This document shows, piece after piece, positions 2,375 to 7,588 of a DNA stretch of 64,000 nt. How positions within the stretch are numbered: position 1 is the stretch's first letter; every line of letters begins with the position of its first letter. The position numbers and the translations under genes are program-made. The DNA lies in assembly GCA_018268675.1 (NCBI GenBank), contig JAFDWB010000041.1:1-64000 (forward strand), in the 5' to 3' direction. The notes beneath the pieces are model-generated. The model had not been told where the DNA came from, did not search any database, and saw only the letters and a program-made list of their open reading frames with translations. This DNA comes from Actinomycetota bacterium. GTDB taxonomy: Bacteria; Actinomycetota; Thermoleophilia; Solirubrobacterales; 70-9.

Positions 2375-2714
2375 CGGCCTAGCCTGTCACGGCGACCGCC
2401 GTCCTGCCCCTGATCCCCTGGCTCAGGACCCCTTGGTGATCGCCGCAGGCGCGGTCCGCCCCTGCGAGGTGCCCATCCTCACTTCGTCACCTCCGTGTCG
2501 GAACTGCGTTTTCCCGGTCCGCCGCGCTCTGACCGGCGGATTCCTATCTTTTACTCTAGTTGATTACAGCAATCAAGTTGAAACCGGTAAAACCGCACAA
2601 TTAAACGAAGGTTTGAGATCACTTCTGGATTTCTTGATCTGGACCCTTTAAGGTCTGCTCATCGGCGTTTTGCCACCGCTGATTCGCCTTGCCAACGACC
2701 GAAAAGAGCCCCCC
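2375..2714. other. AT-rich intergenic region between divergent genes
   Basis: No gene is seen. The stretch 2540-2640 is conspicuously AT-rich for this genome and should hold the promoters of the flanking divergent genes. TTGAAA (2578-2583), 17 bases, then TTAAAC (2601-2606) is a weak sigma-70-like candidate. The clearest element is the palindrome at 2560-2576. Confidence 0.5.
2560..2576. promoter_or_regulatory. TTGATT-N5-AATCAA palindrome, candidate operator
   Basis: A perfect 6-base dyad with a 5-base centre lies about 140 bases upstream of the winged-helix regulator at 2715, just before the weak promoter candidate. Spacing and symmetry suit a dimeric winged-helix protein, possibly the adjacent regulator. 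Binding is inferred. Confidence 0.4.
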
Positions 2715-3299
2715 TTGCCGAAAACCAAGAAGAAGGACGGCGTCGAACAGATCGTCGCCAAAGCCTTCGCGCACCCCCTGCGCGTACAGATCCTGATCAT
2801 TCTGAACGAGCGCGTCGCCAGCCCCAACATGCTGGCCCAGGAGCTCGACCAGAGCCTCAATCTGGTCGCCTACCACGTCCGCGTGCTGGAGAAATACGAC
2901 TGCATCGAGCTCGTCGACACGAAGCAACGCCGCGGTGCCACCGAGCACTTCTACCGCGCCACCCGCCGCCAGTTCCTCAGCGACAGCGAATGGTCGCGGA
3001 TGCCCCAGAGCCTCCGCCCCGGGCTGTCGGGGGCGATGCTCAAATCGATGTTCGACGACATCGAGGAGGCGGTCAAGAGCGGCTCGATGGACGAGCAGGA
3101 CGACCGCCACCTGAGCCGCACCCCGATGGTCGTCGACCAGCAGGGCTGGGACGAGGTGTCGGCGCTGCTCACGGAGACGCTCGACCGCGTCCTCCAGATC
3201 CAGGGCGAGGCGGCCAAACGCCTCTCCGACTCGGGTGAGGACGGGATGCTCTCGAAGGTCGAGATGCTCCACTTCCGCTCCCCCGCCCCGACCGCCTGA
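2715..3299 (+). CDS. ArsR-like winged-helix transcriptional regulator with C-terminal helical domain
   Basis: A 194-residue protein. The start is taken as TTG at 2715 because GAAAAGAG at 2701-2708 is correctly spaced; a TTG at 2670 is in frame but has no such site. The winged helix is KAFAHPLRVQILIILNERVA, then MLAQELDQSLNLVAYHVRVL, then wing RRGATEHFY. It is paralogous to 1109-1444 but carries an extra C-terminal region of about 90 residues, predicted helical, with a conserved-looking VVDQQGWDEVSALL. That region may bind a ligand or partner. It converges on the encapsulin gene, separated by a perfect GC palindrome. Confidence 0.85.
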   Translation: MPKTKKKDGVEQIVAKAFAHPLRVQILIILNERVASPNMLAQELDQSLNLVAYHVRVLEKYDCIELVDTKQRRGATEHFYRATRRQFLSDSEWSRMPQSLRPGLSGAMLKSMFDDIEEAVKSGSMDEQDDRHLSRTPMVVDQQGWDEVSALLTETLDRVLQIQGEAAKRLSDSGEDGMLSKVEMLHFRSPAPTA

Positions 3300-3310
3300 G
3301 CGAGGCGAGG

Positions 3311-3327
3311 GGCGCCGGCCCGGCGCC
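3311..3327. terminator. perfect GC palindrome between convergent genes
   Basis: GGCGCCGG, one base, CCGGCGCC, placed exactly between the convergent stops of the winged-helix gene and the encapsulin gene. No T-tract on either side. A bidirectional transcription stop is plausible but not proven. Confidence 0.4.
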
Positions 3328-3329
3328 GT

Positions 3330-4133
3330 TCAGGGACTGAGCGGCGCCGCGGCCTCCGGGGTCGCGACGACGAAGGAGAAGCTCTCCTCCAGGTAGAGGT
3401 GCACCTCGTCAGCGTCGTGGTGGTCGTAGCCGATCGCGAGGTCCTGGCCCGATTCGAGCAGGAAGTCGCCGCCGCGCAGGCTCATCGCCACCGCGCCGGA
3501 CAGCCCCGGCGCCCAGACGATCGGCCCGCCGTCGAGGATCTTCGACAGGTGGTCGAGCAGCGGGTAGCCGCCGTGCTCGGCCGTCTCGATCACCTTGATG
3601 TGCTCGTCGGGCCCGAGCGCCAGGCCGTAAGGCCCGCCGACGCCGGCCTCGCGCAGCGCCTCGACCGCGCGCGCCACCGAGCGCGGGTAGCCCTCGGCTT
3701 TCTTCCCCAGCGGCTCGGGCTCGAACGGCGAGCTCTCCAGCACGCCCTGGATCCCGGCTTTCGCCCAGCCGTTGAAGACGGCGCTGTTCTCGCAGACGGC
3801 GATCTGGTGGGCGGCGTTGTCGAGCGCCTCGAGGTCGACGTCGACGGCACCGCGGTCGTCGTCGCGCATCTCGGCGCGGGAGACCGCGAAGTCGACGCGC
3901 ACCTCGACCAAGGGCAGGACCCGGCGACGGAGGGCGCCGACGCCTTTCGCGGGCGCGTCGACCGACTCGACCCGGCCGAGGTTGGTCGCCGAGTGCTCCC
4001 AGCCCTGCGGCCCGACGAAATCGACCAGGCGGCGCGCGGCCAGCGCCCCGGCAAGGCGTTGGCGCGCCTCCTCGTCGAGCAGCTTCCAGTTCGAGTCGGT
4101 GAGCGGCGCGTGGCCGCGGAGAAGGTGATTCAT
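3330..4133 (-). CDS. family 1 encapsulin shell protein
   Basis: A 267-residue HK97-fold nanocompartment shell protein. Recognisable encapsulin features are the start MNHLLRGHAPLTDSNWKLLD, LVDFVGPQGWEHSATNLGR, LPLVEVRVDFAVSRAEMRD, AVFNGWAKAGIQGV, GPYGLALGPDEHIKVIET, the C-terminal IVWAPGLSGAVAMSLRGGDF, and DLAIGYDHHDADEVHLYLEE. Length matches the family (about 265). AAAGGA is a ribosome-binding site 8 bases before the ATG. Such shells enclose enzymes (DyP peroxidase, ferritin-like proteins) that carry a C-terminal loading peptide. No complete cargo gene is adjacent, but a reading frame ending in a loading peptide overlaps the start as ATGA (4130-4357). The gene is divergent from the sigma factor at 4351. 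Confidence 0.95.
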   Translation of the reverse strand: MNHLLRGHAPLTDSNWKLLDEEARQRLAGALAARRLVDFVGPQGWEHSATNLGRVESVDAPAKGVGALRRRVLPLVEVRVDFAVSRAEMRDDDRGAVDVDLEALDNAAHQIAVCENSAVFNGWAKAGIQGVLESSPFEPEPLGKKAEGYPRSVARAVEALREAGVGGPYGLALGPDEHIKVIETAEHGGYPLLDHLSKILDGGPIVWAPGLSGAVAMSLRGGDFLLESGQDLAIGYDHHDADEVHLYLEESFSFVVATPEAAAPLSP

Positions 4134-4357
4134 CGTCCCTGTCCTTTCATGCTGCCGATTCCCAGGTCCCTTCCAGGCCTCCTTGGACGTGTGTCGGCGA
4201 GACTATCCGACGCTCCGAGCCGCCCTGAAGTCAGATCGGCTCGGCCGGGAACCCTCGCTATGGTGTGACGTCGGCGCCTTCCCCGGGCGCCGGGCGCTGC
4301 AGGGATTCCCCGCGACCCTCCGGGCGGCGTCTTCCATTGCCTGCCGGGCGATGACAC
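4130..4357 (-). other. short reading frame ending in an orphan encapsulin cargo-loading peptide
   Basis: Codons 4168-4133 on the minus strand spell DLGIGSMKGQGR, followed by TGA at 4132-4130. That stop overlaps the encapsulin ATG as ATGA. The consensus loading peptide of actinobacterial DyP cargo, as I recall it, is (S)LGIGSLKG, so seven of eight positions match. The frame is open upstream only to a GTG at 4357 (75 codons). The rest is Arg/Gly/Pro-rich with no enzyme or ferritin fold, and it runs into the oppositely oriented sigma gene. It may be the relic of a deleted cargo gene, a small free targeting peptide, or less likely chance. An AGGAGG at 4183-4178 has no standard start codon at the right distance. 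Confidence 0.5.
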
Positions 4358-5172
4358 GCACGATGGCAGCCGAGAGCGAAGAGATCCGACCAGCCTCCGA
4401 GGGCGAGCCGAGCGGCCCCGTGGACGCCCTCGCGGGCGAGACCCTGCTGTGGCGGCGGCTGCGCGACCAGCGCGATCCGGCGGCGCGCGAGGAGCTCGTC
4501 CGCCGGTACCTGCCCTTCGCCAAGAACCTGGCCCTGCGCTACCGCGGCGCCAGCGAGTCCTTCGACGACCTGCTGCAGGTGGCGAACCTCGGGCTGGTCA
4601 ACGCGGTCGACCGGTTCGACCCGGCGCGCGGCACCCCCTTCGCGGCGTTCGCCTCGCCGACCATCCTCGGCGAACTGAAGCGCCACTTCCGCGACCGGGT
4701 CTGGACGGTGCGGGTGCCCCGCGGCCTGCACGACCGGATGGCCGAGGTGGAGAAAGTGACCGCGCAGCTGACCGTCGAGCTGCAGCGCTCGCCCTCGGTC
4801 CCCGAGATCGCCGCCAAGCTGGAGATCGATCCCGGCGAAGTGCTCGAGGTGCTGGAGGCCAACCACAACCGGCGCCCCCTCTCGCTCGACCGGCCGGTCG
4901 GCGGCGAGGAGGACGAATCGCCCGCCTCCGAGTGGGTCGGCGACGAGGACGAGGGCTACGAGCTGATCGACGACAAACTGGCGCTCGAGGGCGTCCTCCC
5001 CCAGCTCGACGACCGCGAGCGCCTGATCCTCCGCCTGCGCTTCGTCGAGGACATGACCCAGTCCCAGATCGCCGACCAGATCGGCCACTCTCAGATGCAC
5101 GTCTCCCGCATCCTCCGCCGCACTCTCGAGCGGATCCGCGAAGAGGTGGCGGAGCAGGACGGGGAGGCGTAG
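4351..5172 (+). CDS. SigB/SigF-family RNA polymerase sigma factor
   Basis: About 273 residues (269 if the second ATG at 4363 is used). Region 2 is clear: LPFAKNLALRYRGASESFDD, LLQVANLGLVNAVDRFDPAR, FAAFASPTILGELKRHFRDR. Region 3 is WTVRVPRGLHDRMAEVEKVT. Region 4 ends with DRERLILRLRFVEDMTQSQI and GHSQMHVSRILRRTLERIR, the -35-binding helix-turn-helix. This layout is that of stress/sporulation SigB/SigF sigmas controlled by partner switching. The anti-sigma-like and STAS proteins that follow (5206-6551) fit that control. The encapsulin gene is transcribed divergently from the same gap. Confidence 0.93.
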   Translation: MTRTMAAESEEIRPASEGEPSGPVDALAGETLLWRRLRDQRDPAAREELVRRYLPFAKNLALRYRGASESFDDLLQVANLGLVNAVDRFDPARGTPFAAFASPTILGELKRHFRDRVWTVRVPRGLHDRMAEVEKVTAQLTVELQRSPSVPEIAAKLEIDPGEVLEVLEANHNRRPLSLDRPVGGEEDESPASEWVGDEDEGYELIDDKLALEGVLPQLDDRERLILRLRFVEDMTQSQIADQIGHSQMHVSRILRRTLERIREEVAEQDGEA

Positions 5173-5205
5173 GGGCGCGCCGGGGGGCGGCAGCCGGGGT
5201 GGCGG

Positions 5206-6036
5206 TCAGGTCGCGATGGCGGCGATCGCGACGACCAGGTACTCGCCGTCGTCGTCGACGTCGGTGCGGACCTCGTCGGCGAGGGTCTCCAGCGAGCCGC
5301 CGAGGTCGGGGAGGGCGAGGCTGCGGCGGAGGTCGGCGGCGGCGCCGGGGGCCATCGGGCCGAGCTTCAGCTCGACGCCCTCGGGGCGGTCGGCGACGCT
5401 GACGTGGACGATGCCGTCGGTGAAGCCGCGGGGGGCCGCCGCGGCGATCGCGTCGGCGAGGAGGATCGCGTCGGAGATGCGGTCGACGGTGATCGCGCGG
5501 CGGGCGGCGAGGGCGGTCAGGGCGCGGCTCAGGACCGGGCCGAGAAGGTCGGCGCCGACCGTCATCTCGGTCGCCTCGGGGACCGGCGGGCCGGTGGCCG
5601 GCTCGGCCTCCGTCGCCGCGATGGGGCGCGAGCGGAGCGGCAGGTGCATGCGGATCTCGGTCCCCCGCTCGACCCCGCCACGGATCTCGAAGCTCGAGGA
5701 GAGGGCGGCGATCAGCGCCAGGCCGATCCGCAGGCTCGGCCGGTCGACCCCCGGCCGGGGGGTGATCCCGCGGCCGAAGTCGCGCACCGCGACGGTCAGC
5801 CCGTCGCCGTCGGCCCCGGCGGCGACCTCAAGCAGCCCCGGCTCGCCGTCCGGGTAGGCGTGGGTGACGACGTTCATCCCGGCCTCGGTGACGACCGTCT
5901 TCAGGTCGGCGGTCGCCGCCTCGTCCATGCCGAGCCGCTCCGCCAGGCCGGCGACCGCGTGGCGAACCACCGCGACGTTCTCCGCCCGGGCGGGAAGCGA
6001 CATACGCAGGCCTGATGGATCGACGTTGGTGCTCAA
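5206..6036 (-). CDS. anti-sigma factor (RsbW-like ATP-binding protein) with second degenerate ATPase-like domain
   Basis: A 276-residue protein from a TTG; ATG at 6003 is an alternative but would cut the first strand. Residues 8-135 form a GHKL ATPase domain of the RsbW type with N-box TEAGMNVVTHAY (E51, N55, H59) and G boxes VRDFGRGI and IGLALIAALS. Residues 155-276 look like a second copy in which the N-box position reads DAILLADAIAAAAP, lacking the Glu/Asn pair. The first domain should bind the sigma factor or phosphorylate the STAS protein; the second may be structural. The gene lies between its likely partners, on the opposite strand. Confidence 0.85.
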   Translation of the reverse strand: MSTNVDPSGLRMSLPARAENVAVVRHAVAGLAERLGMDEAATADLKTVVTEAGMNVVTHAYPDGEPGLLEVAAGADGDGLTVAVRDFGRGITPRPGVDRPSLRIGLALIAALSSSFEIRGGVERGTEIRMHLPLRSRPIAATEAEPATGPPVPEATEMTVGADLLGPVLSRALTALAARRAITVDRISDAILLADAIAAAAPRGFTDGIVHVSVADRPEGVELKLGPMAPGAAADLRRSLALPDLGGSLETLADEVRTDVDDDGEYLVVAIAAIAT

Positions 6037-6179
6037 GATCTTCTGTCCCCAGCTCGGCGACGCCCCGCTTCTGCCGCGCCGCGAAAACTATCGGCCCTGC
6101 GTTCGCCCTGATACCCAGCCGTACCCGTCGCAAACGACGAGCGGCGCACCGACGCCCGGCTGCGCTAGCATCGCGCGCA

Positions 6180-6551
6180 GTGGGGCCCGCGCCGTTTCAA
6201 GCATCCGCCTCCGTCCTGGAGGGCGGAGTTCGACTCCTCGAGATCCACGGCGAGCTCGACCTCTCCACCGCGGGCCAGCTCGAGGGCCCGCTGGAGGAAG
6301 CGACCAGCGACGAGGACGGCGCGGTCCTGATCGACCTCGCAGAGTGCACCTTCATCGACTCGACCGGGATCGCGATGATCGTCCGCGCCTGGCAGCGGGT
6401 CGACGGCGCGGCCGGCAACGGCGGCCAAGGTGGCCTCGTCCTCTGCTGCCAGAACGAGCAGGTCCGGCGCGTCCTCGAGGTCACCGGCCTCGAGCACTCG
6501 CTGCGGGTGTTCCCGACCCGCGACGCCGCCGCCGCGGCGCTGCGCGGGTGA
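6180..6551 (+). CDS. STAS-domain anti-sigma factor antagonist (RsbV-like)
   Basis: A 123-residue single STAS domain from a GTG at 6180; the open frame upstream of this is Arg-rich and not family-like. The signature is VLEGGVRLLEIHGELDLSTA, then VLIDLAECTFIDSTGIAMIV. Ser61 of the DSTG motif is the phospho-acceptor expected to be modified by an RsbW-type kinase. When unphosphorylated, such proteins bind the anti-sigma and free the sigma. With 4351-5172 and 5206-6036 it makes a complete core partner-switching module. No PP2C phosphatase (RsbU/RsbP) is present in the window. Confidence 0.9.
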   Translation: MGPAPFQASASVLEGGVRLLEIHGELDLSTAGQLEGPLEEATSDEDGAVLIDLAECTFIDSTGIAMIVRAWQRVDGAAGNGGQGGLVLCCQNEQVRRVLEVTGLEHSLRVFPTRDAAAAALRG

Positions 6552-6631
6552 GGTTCGTCACGCGGGCGCAACGCCGCGATTGAGGCGGGGTTGGTCGGGT
6601 AGCGGGCTTTGATGGCCCCGCCCCACCGCTG

Positions 6632-7588
6632 ATGCCCTCGCCCAAACCGAAACGACCGCGACTGCCGCGCGAGCTGTTCGAGACGCGCAGCCACGCCTGG
6701 ACCGCGCTCGGGCTGAGCGAAGAGATCGAGACGCGCCGCCTCTCGAAGCGCTCCCTCGCGGGCCTCGTCCTCGCCGTGCTGGCCCTGATCGCGACGCTGG
6801 TCGTCTACACGCACCGCCAGCAGATCGCCCCCGGCTACGGCGAATGGTTCCGGGTCGGCACGGTGATCGTCCTGGTGCTGGTCGGCAGCGCCGCGATCCA
6901 CTGGCTCCTGCGCGTGCTCCAGCCGCGCCTCAACCGCCGGCTCGACCCGGCCACCGCGGGGACGACGGGCTTCGTCTTCCGCTTTCTGGCGACCCTGGCG
7001 ATCGTCGTCGTGGCGCTGCGGATCGCCGGCGTCACCGCCTCCACCCTCGCCGTCGGCGGCGCCTTCACCGCGGTGCTGCTCGGCCTCGCCGCGCAGCAGA
7101 GCCTCGGCGCGATCTTCGCCGGCGTCGTCCTGCAGAGCACGCGGCCGTTCCGGGTCGGCGAACGGGTGCGGCTCGTCGGCGGCCCGCTGGCCGGCTCGCT
7201 GGAGGGCACGGTCACCTCGCTCGGCCTCTTCTACACGACGCTCAGCCAGGGGGCCGACCGCCTGCTGATCCCCAACAACGTGCTGCTGATGGTCGCCGTG
7301 GTGCCGCTGCGCGAGCCCGACAAGGTCGACGTGCGGGTGCGCTTTCCCCGCCACGTCAGCCCCCGCGAAGTCGAGCAGCAGCTGCTCCGCACGATCTCCG
7401 TGCCGACCCGCTACCGGCCGAGCGTCTCGCTCGAGGAAATCGAGCCCGACAGCGTGATCATGCGGATCAACGCGACGCCGCTGCGCTCCGAGGACGGCTC
7501 GCAGCTGGCCGAGGAGGTGCTGGAGGCGCTCCACCGCCGCGACACGGCCGAACACGAGGCCGCCGGGACCTCCCCCCTGCCGGACTAG
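6632..7588 (+). CDS. MscS-family mechanosensitive ion channel
   Basis: A 318-residue membrane protein. Hydrophobic segments lie near residues 42-62, 73-93, 110-132 and 137-168. The last is the pore-lining helix AVGGAFTAVLLGLAAQQSLG, followed by the MscS beta domain VLQSTRPFRVGERVRLVGG, GTVTSLGLFYTTLSQGADR and LLIPNNVLL. The C-terminal alpha/beta domain starts at VDVRVRFPRHVSP. Small-conductance channels release solutes on hypo-osmotic shock. It sits just after the sigma/anti-sigma/antagonist module, but no shared promoter can be seen. Confidence 0.9.
   Translation: MPSPKPKRPRLPRELFETRSHAWTALGLSEEIETRRLSKRSLAGLVLAVLALIATLVVYTHRQQIAPGYGEWFRVGTVIVLVLVGSAAIHWLLRVLQPRLNRRLDPATAGTTGFVFRFLATLAIVVVALRIAGVTASTLAVGGAFTAVLLGLAAQQSLGAIFAGVVLQSTRPFRVGERVRLVGGPLAGSLEGTVTSLGLFYTTLSQGADRLLIPNNVLLMVAVVPLREPDKVDVRVRFPRHVSPREVEQQLLRTISVPTRYRPSVSLEEIEPDSVIMRINATPLRSEDGSQLAEEVLEALHRRDTAEHEAAGTSPLPD

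What the first reader, a model, noticed from the sequence alone, without database searches (positions are those of the whole stretch)
4130..4357. Orphan encapsulin cargo-loading peptide fused to no visible cargo
Minus-strand codons just before the encapsulin ATG spell DLGIGSMKGQGR and stop in an ATGA overlap with the shell gene. LGIGS-x-KG is the loading-peptide consensus of actinobacterial encapsulin cargo. Yet the frame is at most 75 codons and shows no enzyme or ferritin domain before it meets the opposite-strand sigma gene. Possibilities: (a) the tail of a deleted cargo gene, kept because its AAAGGA codons (Lys-Gly) double as the encapsulin ribosome-binding site; (b) a small translated peptide that fills or plugs shells; (c) chance. 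Selection on the binding site alone would not preserve the D-L-G-I-G-S codons.
Basis: partly seen in the sequence, partly recalled or inferred. Interest (0 to 1): 0.88.

Follow-up and report, generated by a model that had tools for sequence, protein, structure and literature searches.

The report
Leftover tag of deleted encapsulin cargo
The short peptide code in front of this bacterium's protein-shell gene is the leftover tail of a deleted iron-storage cargo gene, and the shell was probably kept because a peroxidase elsewhere in the genome carries the same kind of loading tag.

Summary
Minus-strand codons 4168-4133 read DLGIGSMKGQGR and stop in an ATGA overlap with a family 1 encapsulin gene. 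Six of the 12 genomes of the genus carry an intact encapsulated ferritin (EncFtn, PF22277) at exactly this place, ending in the same tag with the same overlap. In the window the EncFtn body is gone but its leader, ribosome-binding site and tag tail remain, so possibility (a) holds. The 75-codon frame is not a gene: nothing supports its start, and a cargo-less relative has a stop inside the tag. Five separate erosions of this operon are inferred in the genus. Where the cargo alone was lost (G000, G274, G368) the shell gene stays intact and constrained (omega about 0.07). These three genomes each encode an unlinked DyP peroxidase ending in an SLGIG-type tag; in G000 it is the only substantial protein found ending that way. 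That DyP occurs in 19 of 399 genomes of the class, all of them encapsulin carriers. Best reading: the EncFtn was deleted recently and the shell now serves the DyP in trans. Loading itself was not tested. The parts are known kinds; repeated cargo loss with shell retention was not found described.

The parts
4130..4168 (-). Relic 3' end of the deleted EncFtn cargo gene: codons (D)LGIGSMKGQGR plus TGA stop; ATGA overlap with the encapsulin start
   Evidence: Sequence; same tail on intact EncFtn genes of congeners
4166..4177 (-). Approximate deletion scar: old ribosome-binding site joined to the linker just before LGIGS; the EncFtn start codon is lost
   Evidence: Leader alignment and pairwise alignments; exact breakpoints are ambiguous by about 10 bases
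4178..4184 (-). AAGGAGG, the former EncFtn ribosome-binding site, now without a standard start codon at the right distance
   Evidence: Aligns with the AAGGAGG-type site just before the EncFtn ATG in most congeners
4197..4205 (-). TAGTCTCGC, a conserved leader element that fits an actinobacterial -10 (TANNNT); probable operon promoter, inferred
   Evidence: Conserved as TA[GA]TCTCG in most congeners
3330..4133 (-). Family 1 encapsulin shell protein, 267 aa, intact and under purifying selection
   Evidence: Pfam PF04454 E=3.8e-82; NCBIfam NF041155; branch omega 0.072 against 0.085 for the rest
4142..4147 (-). AAAGGA, probable encapsulin ribosome-binding site lying inside the relic tag codons (Lys-Gly)
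   Evidence: Sequence, 8 bases before the encapsulin ATG; function inferred
4130..4357 (-). The finding's 75-codon open frame (GTG start): spurious upstream of about 4168
   Evidence: No Pfam match; not conserved in G274
4363..5172 (+). Sigma-70-type (SigB/F-like) stress sigma factor, divergent neighbour; syntenic in all 12 genomes of the genus
   Evidence: Pfam; synteny
2670..3299 (+). Helix-turn-helix regulator flanking the encapsulin; syntenic in all 12 genomes and marks the empty sites in G192 and G300
   Evidence: Pfam HTH_20, below cut-off

Best explanation
DLGIGSMKGQGR is the vestigial C-terminal loading tag of an encapsulated ferritin (EncFtn) gene that formed an operon with the shell gene in the ancestor of the genus. 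A deletion in the window's lineage removed the EncFtn body and start codon. It left the promoter-side leader, the EncFtn ribosome-binding site and the last 11 codons, whose Lys-Gly codons double as the shell gene's own ribosome-binding site. The peptide is most likely not translated. The shell gene remains functional and is probably filled by a DyP-type peroxidase made elsewhere in the genome (G000:C71:51304-52344, minus strand), which ends in its own tag EGSLGIGGIGAG. Shown here: the relic, its homology, the missing EncFtn, the intact constrained shell gene, and the tagged DyP with its restriction to encapsulin genomes. Inferred: that the DyP is actually loaded, and that this is why the shell was kept.
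For: Six congeners (G398, G399, G400, G369, G264, G222) have intact EncFtn genes ending in SLGIG[SG][LM]KG immediately before the shell gene; Pfam EncFtn-like E=1e-19, PDB encapsulated ferritins E=4e-23. The leader TAGTCTCGC and AAGGAGG are kept in the window. No EncFtn occurs elsewhere in G000 or G274. The losses look separate: G274 groups with EncFtn-bearing G398 (bootstrap 88) and its junction differs; G368 has an in-frame core deletion; G196 has a frameshifted, fused remnant; G192 and G300 have empty sites. Shell omega on the three cargo-less branches is 0.070 against 0.089 elsewhere, 2dlnL 1.07, so no relaxation is seen. The tagged DyP is present in G000, G274 and G368. Of eight SLGIG-like sites in G000, only the DyP's sits at the end of a substantial protein. 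The DyP occurs in 19 of 399 class genomes, all 19 among the 54 with encapsulin; Fisher p=1.3e-18, not corrected for phylogeny. In the genus, all 9 genomes with an intact shell have at least one tagged cargo and the 3 without a tagged cargo lack an intact shell.
Against: Loading of the DyP was not tested. The G274 DyP tag (SLGIGGRRDADLA) lacks the usual second hydrophobic residue, and three genomes with intact EncFtn have no DyP match (G398 is only 84% complete). The genomes are fragmented drafts, many of them metagenome-assembled; no second assembly of the window's species was seen. If the deletion were old, the unchanged LGIGSMKGQGR codons would need explaining.
Confidence: 0.88

Rival explanations
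1. The relic is still translated as a small peptide that binds the cargo docking sites, plugging shells or competing with the DyP for them.
For: The 11 codons are unchanged although about 8 amino-acid changes would be expected over the whole lineage branch without constraint. A CTG (the Leu codon) lies 12 bases after AAGGAGG. G368 keeps a translatable 69-aa remnant with ribosome-binding site, start codon and intact tag.
Against: In frame there is no ATG, GTG or TTG between the former promoter and the tag; the only upstream start is the GTG at 4357 at the edge of the sigma gene. G274, which lost EncFtn separately, has a stop inside the tag and kept its shell. A recent deletion plus overlap with the shell's ribosome-binding site explains the lack of change.
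Confidence: 0.04
2. The deletion is an assembly artefact and the organism really has an intact EncFtn gene here.
For: The genome is a draft in 95 contigs, and one EncFtn copy could be lost in assembly.
Against: The site lies inside one contig with conserved flanking genes on both sides. The leader element, ribosome-binding site and tag are retained around a clean junction. No EncFtn fragment occurs elsewhere. Other assemblies show comparable losses with different junctions.
Confidence: 0.04
3. The tag is a relic as above, but the shell is an evolutionary leftover with no cargo and will soon be lost.
For: The operon is being lost repeatedly in the genus; G196, G192 and G300 have broken or no shell genes.
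Against: Purifying selection on the shell is undiminished on the cargo-less branches, and each of these genomes has a tagged DyP. Cargo loss could still be too recent for relaxed selection to show.
Confidence: 0.08

Closest known systems
EncFtn / encapsulated ferritin-like cargo of family 1 encapsulins (Rhodospirillum rubrum Rru_A0973, Haliangium ochraceum; PF22277, TIGR04535)
   Same: The congeners' intact gene is a clear relative with a C-terminal loading tag, directly upstream of the shell gene.
   Different: In the window only the tag codons survive; the ferritin body is deleted. The intact congener gene scores below the TIGR04535 subfamily cut-off.
Encapsulated DyP peroxidases (solved relative 7bok, E=1.6e-132)
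   Same: The in-trans protein is a DyP peroxidase with the same kind of C-terminal SLGIG tag.
   Different: Its gene is unlinked to the shell gene here, whereas the published survey describes DyP systems as operons with the shell gene (PMC8346489).
Secondary cargo encoded away from the shell operon (BfrB proposed for the Mycobacterium tuberculosis encapsulin, PMC8346489; secondary cargo consensus tags, PMC6934571)
   Same: Cargo supplied in trans through its own tag.
   Different: Here both cargo types carry the core-type LGIG tag, and in three genomes the in-trans cargo is the only intact one left.

Membership tests
Family 1 encapsulin shell | Linocin_M18 (HK97-type) shell protein at full length | tested here: met
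   PF04454 1-252/253 E=3.8e-82; NF041155 above cut-off; solved relatives E=6e-66 over residues 1-267
Family 1 encapsulin shell | Assembles into an icosahedral shell that takes up tagged cargo | not testable with these tools
   Needs purification and microscopy
EncFtn cargo gene (the finding itself) | Ferritin-like EncFtn domain before the tag | tested here: not met
   No Pfam match for the 75-codon frame; no EncFtn in the genome. It is a relic, not a member
EncFtn cargo gene (the finding itself) | C-terminal loading tag immediately upstream of and overlapping the shell gene | tested here: met
   DLGIGSMKGQGR with ATGA overlap; same arrangement in intact congeners
DyP encapsulin cargo (in trans) | DyP peroxidase domains | tested here: met
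   PF04261 E=4.1e-27 and PF20628 E=1.7e-54; TIGR01413 above cut-off
DyP encapsulin cargo (in trans) | C-terminal loading tag | tested here: met
   EGSLGIGGIGAG at the C-terminus; LGIG-type or close variants end all 22 DyP genes read, G000's included
DyP encapsulin cargo (in trans) | Physically loaded into the shell | not testable with these tools
   Supported only by the tag and by co-occurrence

The most novel reading that the evidence does not exclude
The vestigial tag is still translated as a stand-alone peptide that occupies docking sites and tunes how much DyP enters the shell; the 69-aa core-less EncFtn remnant of G368 would be an earlier stage of the same process.
Probability: 0.04. Interest if true: 0.8.

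Novelty: new member of a known kind. Interest (0 to 1): 0.5.

Why it matters
The genus gives a natural series of encapsulin cargo loss: both cargoes, ferritin only, DyP only with ferritin relics in different states, and complete loss. It suggests that a shell survives the loss of its operon's cargo only if another tagged cargo exists, a rule that can be tested by counting. It also warns that operon context alone can mis-assign cargo: surveys that look only next to the shell gene would call this an orphan or an iron-storage system, while the likely content is a peroxidase encoded elsewhere.

Tried and rejected
A translated 75-codon protein was rejected: no family match, not conserved, and its only start lies at the edge of the sigma gene. 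EncFtn encoded elsewhere was rejected at E<=0.01 in G000 and G274. A single shared deletion in G000 and G274 was considered; G274 groups with intact G398 (bootstrap 88) and the junctions differ, so two events are favoured, but deeper nodes of the tree are weak. The strict tag pattern allowing 3 mismatches missed the DyP tag; the DyP family search and the SLGIG pattern found it. The other DyP of G000 has no tag (G000:C15). Paper searches for encapsulin with 'cargo loss' or 'Thermoleophilia' found none; 'pseudogene' gave 4 papers, none on this subject by title.

Full report
What is in the sequence. On the minus strand the codons GAC CTG GGA ATC GGC AGC ATG AAA GGA CAG GGA CGA TGA run from 4168 to 4130 and overlap the encapsulin ATG (4133) as ATGA. 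The downstream gene is a full-length family 1 encapsulin shell protein. The tag motif is unique in the six frames of the window and did not occur in 6 Mb of simulated sequence.

What it was. The encapsulin was sought in public genomes and in 399 genomes of the class. Most relatives have a cargo gene directly upstream that ends in an SLGIG[SG]L-type tag. In the window's own genus of 12 genomes, six (G398, G399, G400, G369, G264, G222) carry an intact encapsulated ferritin there: Pfam EncFtn-like E=1e-19, solved encapsulated ferritins E=4e-23. G398 ends SLGIGSMKGQAR and G400 SLGIGSMKGVGR, nearly the window's tail.

What happened. The window keeps the leader element TAGTCTCGC (4205-4197) and the EncFtn ribosome-binding site AAGGAGG (4184-4178). 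The sequence then runs within about a dozen bases into LGIGSMKGQGR, so the EncFtn start codon and body were deleted. No EncFtn was found elsewhere in the genome. The relic's LGIGSMKGQGR shows no amino-acid change, where about 8 would be expected over the whole lineage branch without constraint. A deletion in roughly the last third of the branch, or partial constraint from the overlapping shell ribosome-binding site AAAGGA, is enough to explain that.

A series of losses. G274 lost EncFtn with a different junction and has a TAG stop inside the tag; it groups with EncFtn-bearing G398 (bootstrap 88). G368 has an in-frame deletion of the ferritin core that keeps the first 35 residues and the tag, 69 aa in all. 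G196 has a frameshifted EncFtn run together with a truncated shell gene, and G192 and G300 have neither gene between the same neighbours. That makes five inferred erosion events, counting G192 and G300 as one. The count rests on a tree with some weak nodes.

Why the shell stayed. In the three genomes that lost EncFtn but kept the shell, the shell's omega is 0.070 against 0.089 on other branches, with no significant difference. The branches include time before the loss, so a recent relaxation could be missed. All three encode a DyP peroxidase whose gene lies on another contig than the shell gene and ends in a loading-type tag: EGSLGIGGIGAG in G000, SLGIGGLRDG in G368, SLGIGGRRDADLA in G274. Of eight SLGIG-like sites in G000, the DyP's is the only one at the end of a substantial protein. 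The DyP's best solved relative is a tagged DyP, 7bok. Docking work on the Thermotoga shell attributes binding mainly to the L-G-I residues (PMC7925596), which all three tags keep. At the search threshold this DyP occurs in 19 of 399 genomes of the class, and all 19 are among the 54 with an encapsulin match (Fisher p=1.3e-18, without correction for relatedness). Several genomes carry EncFtn beside the shell and DyP elsewhere. In the genus, each of the nine genomes with an intact shell has at least one tagged cargo, and the three with no tagged cargo have no intact shell (by arithmetic, 1 in 220 by chance, again ignoring relatedness).

Is the peptide made? Probably not. Between the former promoter and the tag there is no in-frame ATG, GTG or TTG. 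The GTG at 4357 lies at the edge of the opposite sigma gene, and that frame is not conserved in G274. A CTG start is possible but has no support.

What is known. DyP and ferritin-like proteins are the two main cargo classes of family 1 encapsulins, and an in-trans cargo has been proposed for M. tuberculosis (PMC8346489). Secondary cargoes recognised by their own tags are also described (PMC6934571). Repeated loss of the operon's cargo with the shell retained did not turn up in the papers searched, a limited library. The verdict is a vestigial tag of a known cargo family, in a system of known kind, with an unusually clear history.

Noticed in passing
L006:3795-4001 and L133 (G368:C271): G368 keeps a translatable 69-aa core-less EncFtn remnant with ribosome-binding site, start codon and intact tag, next to an intact shell gene, and has a tagged DyP elsewhere.
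   Followed up: partly
L155, L156, L150 (DyP C-termini of G256, G383, G274): Some in-trans DyP tags lack the second hydrophobic residue (SLGIGNART, SLGIGPARD, SLGIGGRRD), perhaps weakened tags.
   Followed up: no
window 2670-7588 and syntenic loci: The encapsulin locus lies between an HTH regulator and a stress sigma / anti-sigma / STAS / MscS-type cluster across the genus, suggesting stress co-regulation.
   Followed up: partly
L002, L004, L005, L084 between the sigma gene and EncFtn: Intact congeners carry roughly 1-2.6 kb of extra sequence between the sigma gene and EncFtn; the window and G274 have only about 200 bp between sigma and encapsulin.
   Followed up: no
L157 and L170 (G053): G053 has two tagged DyP genes on other contigs and no EncFtn or DyP match beside its shell gene, another candidate in-trans system.
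   Followed up: partly
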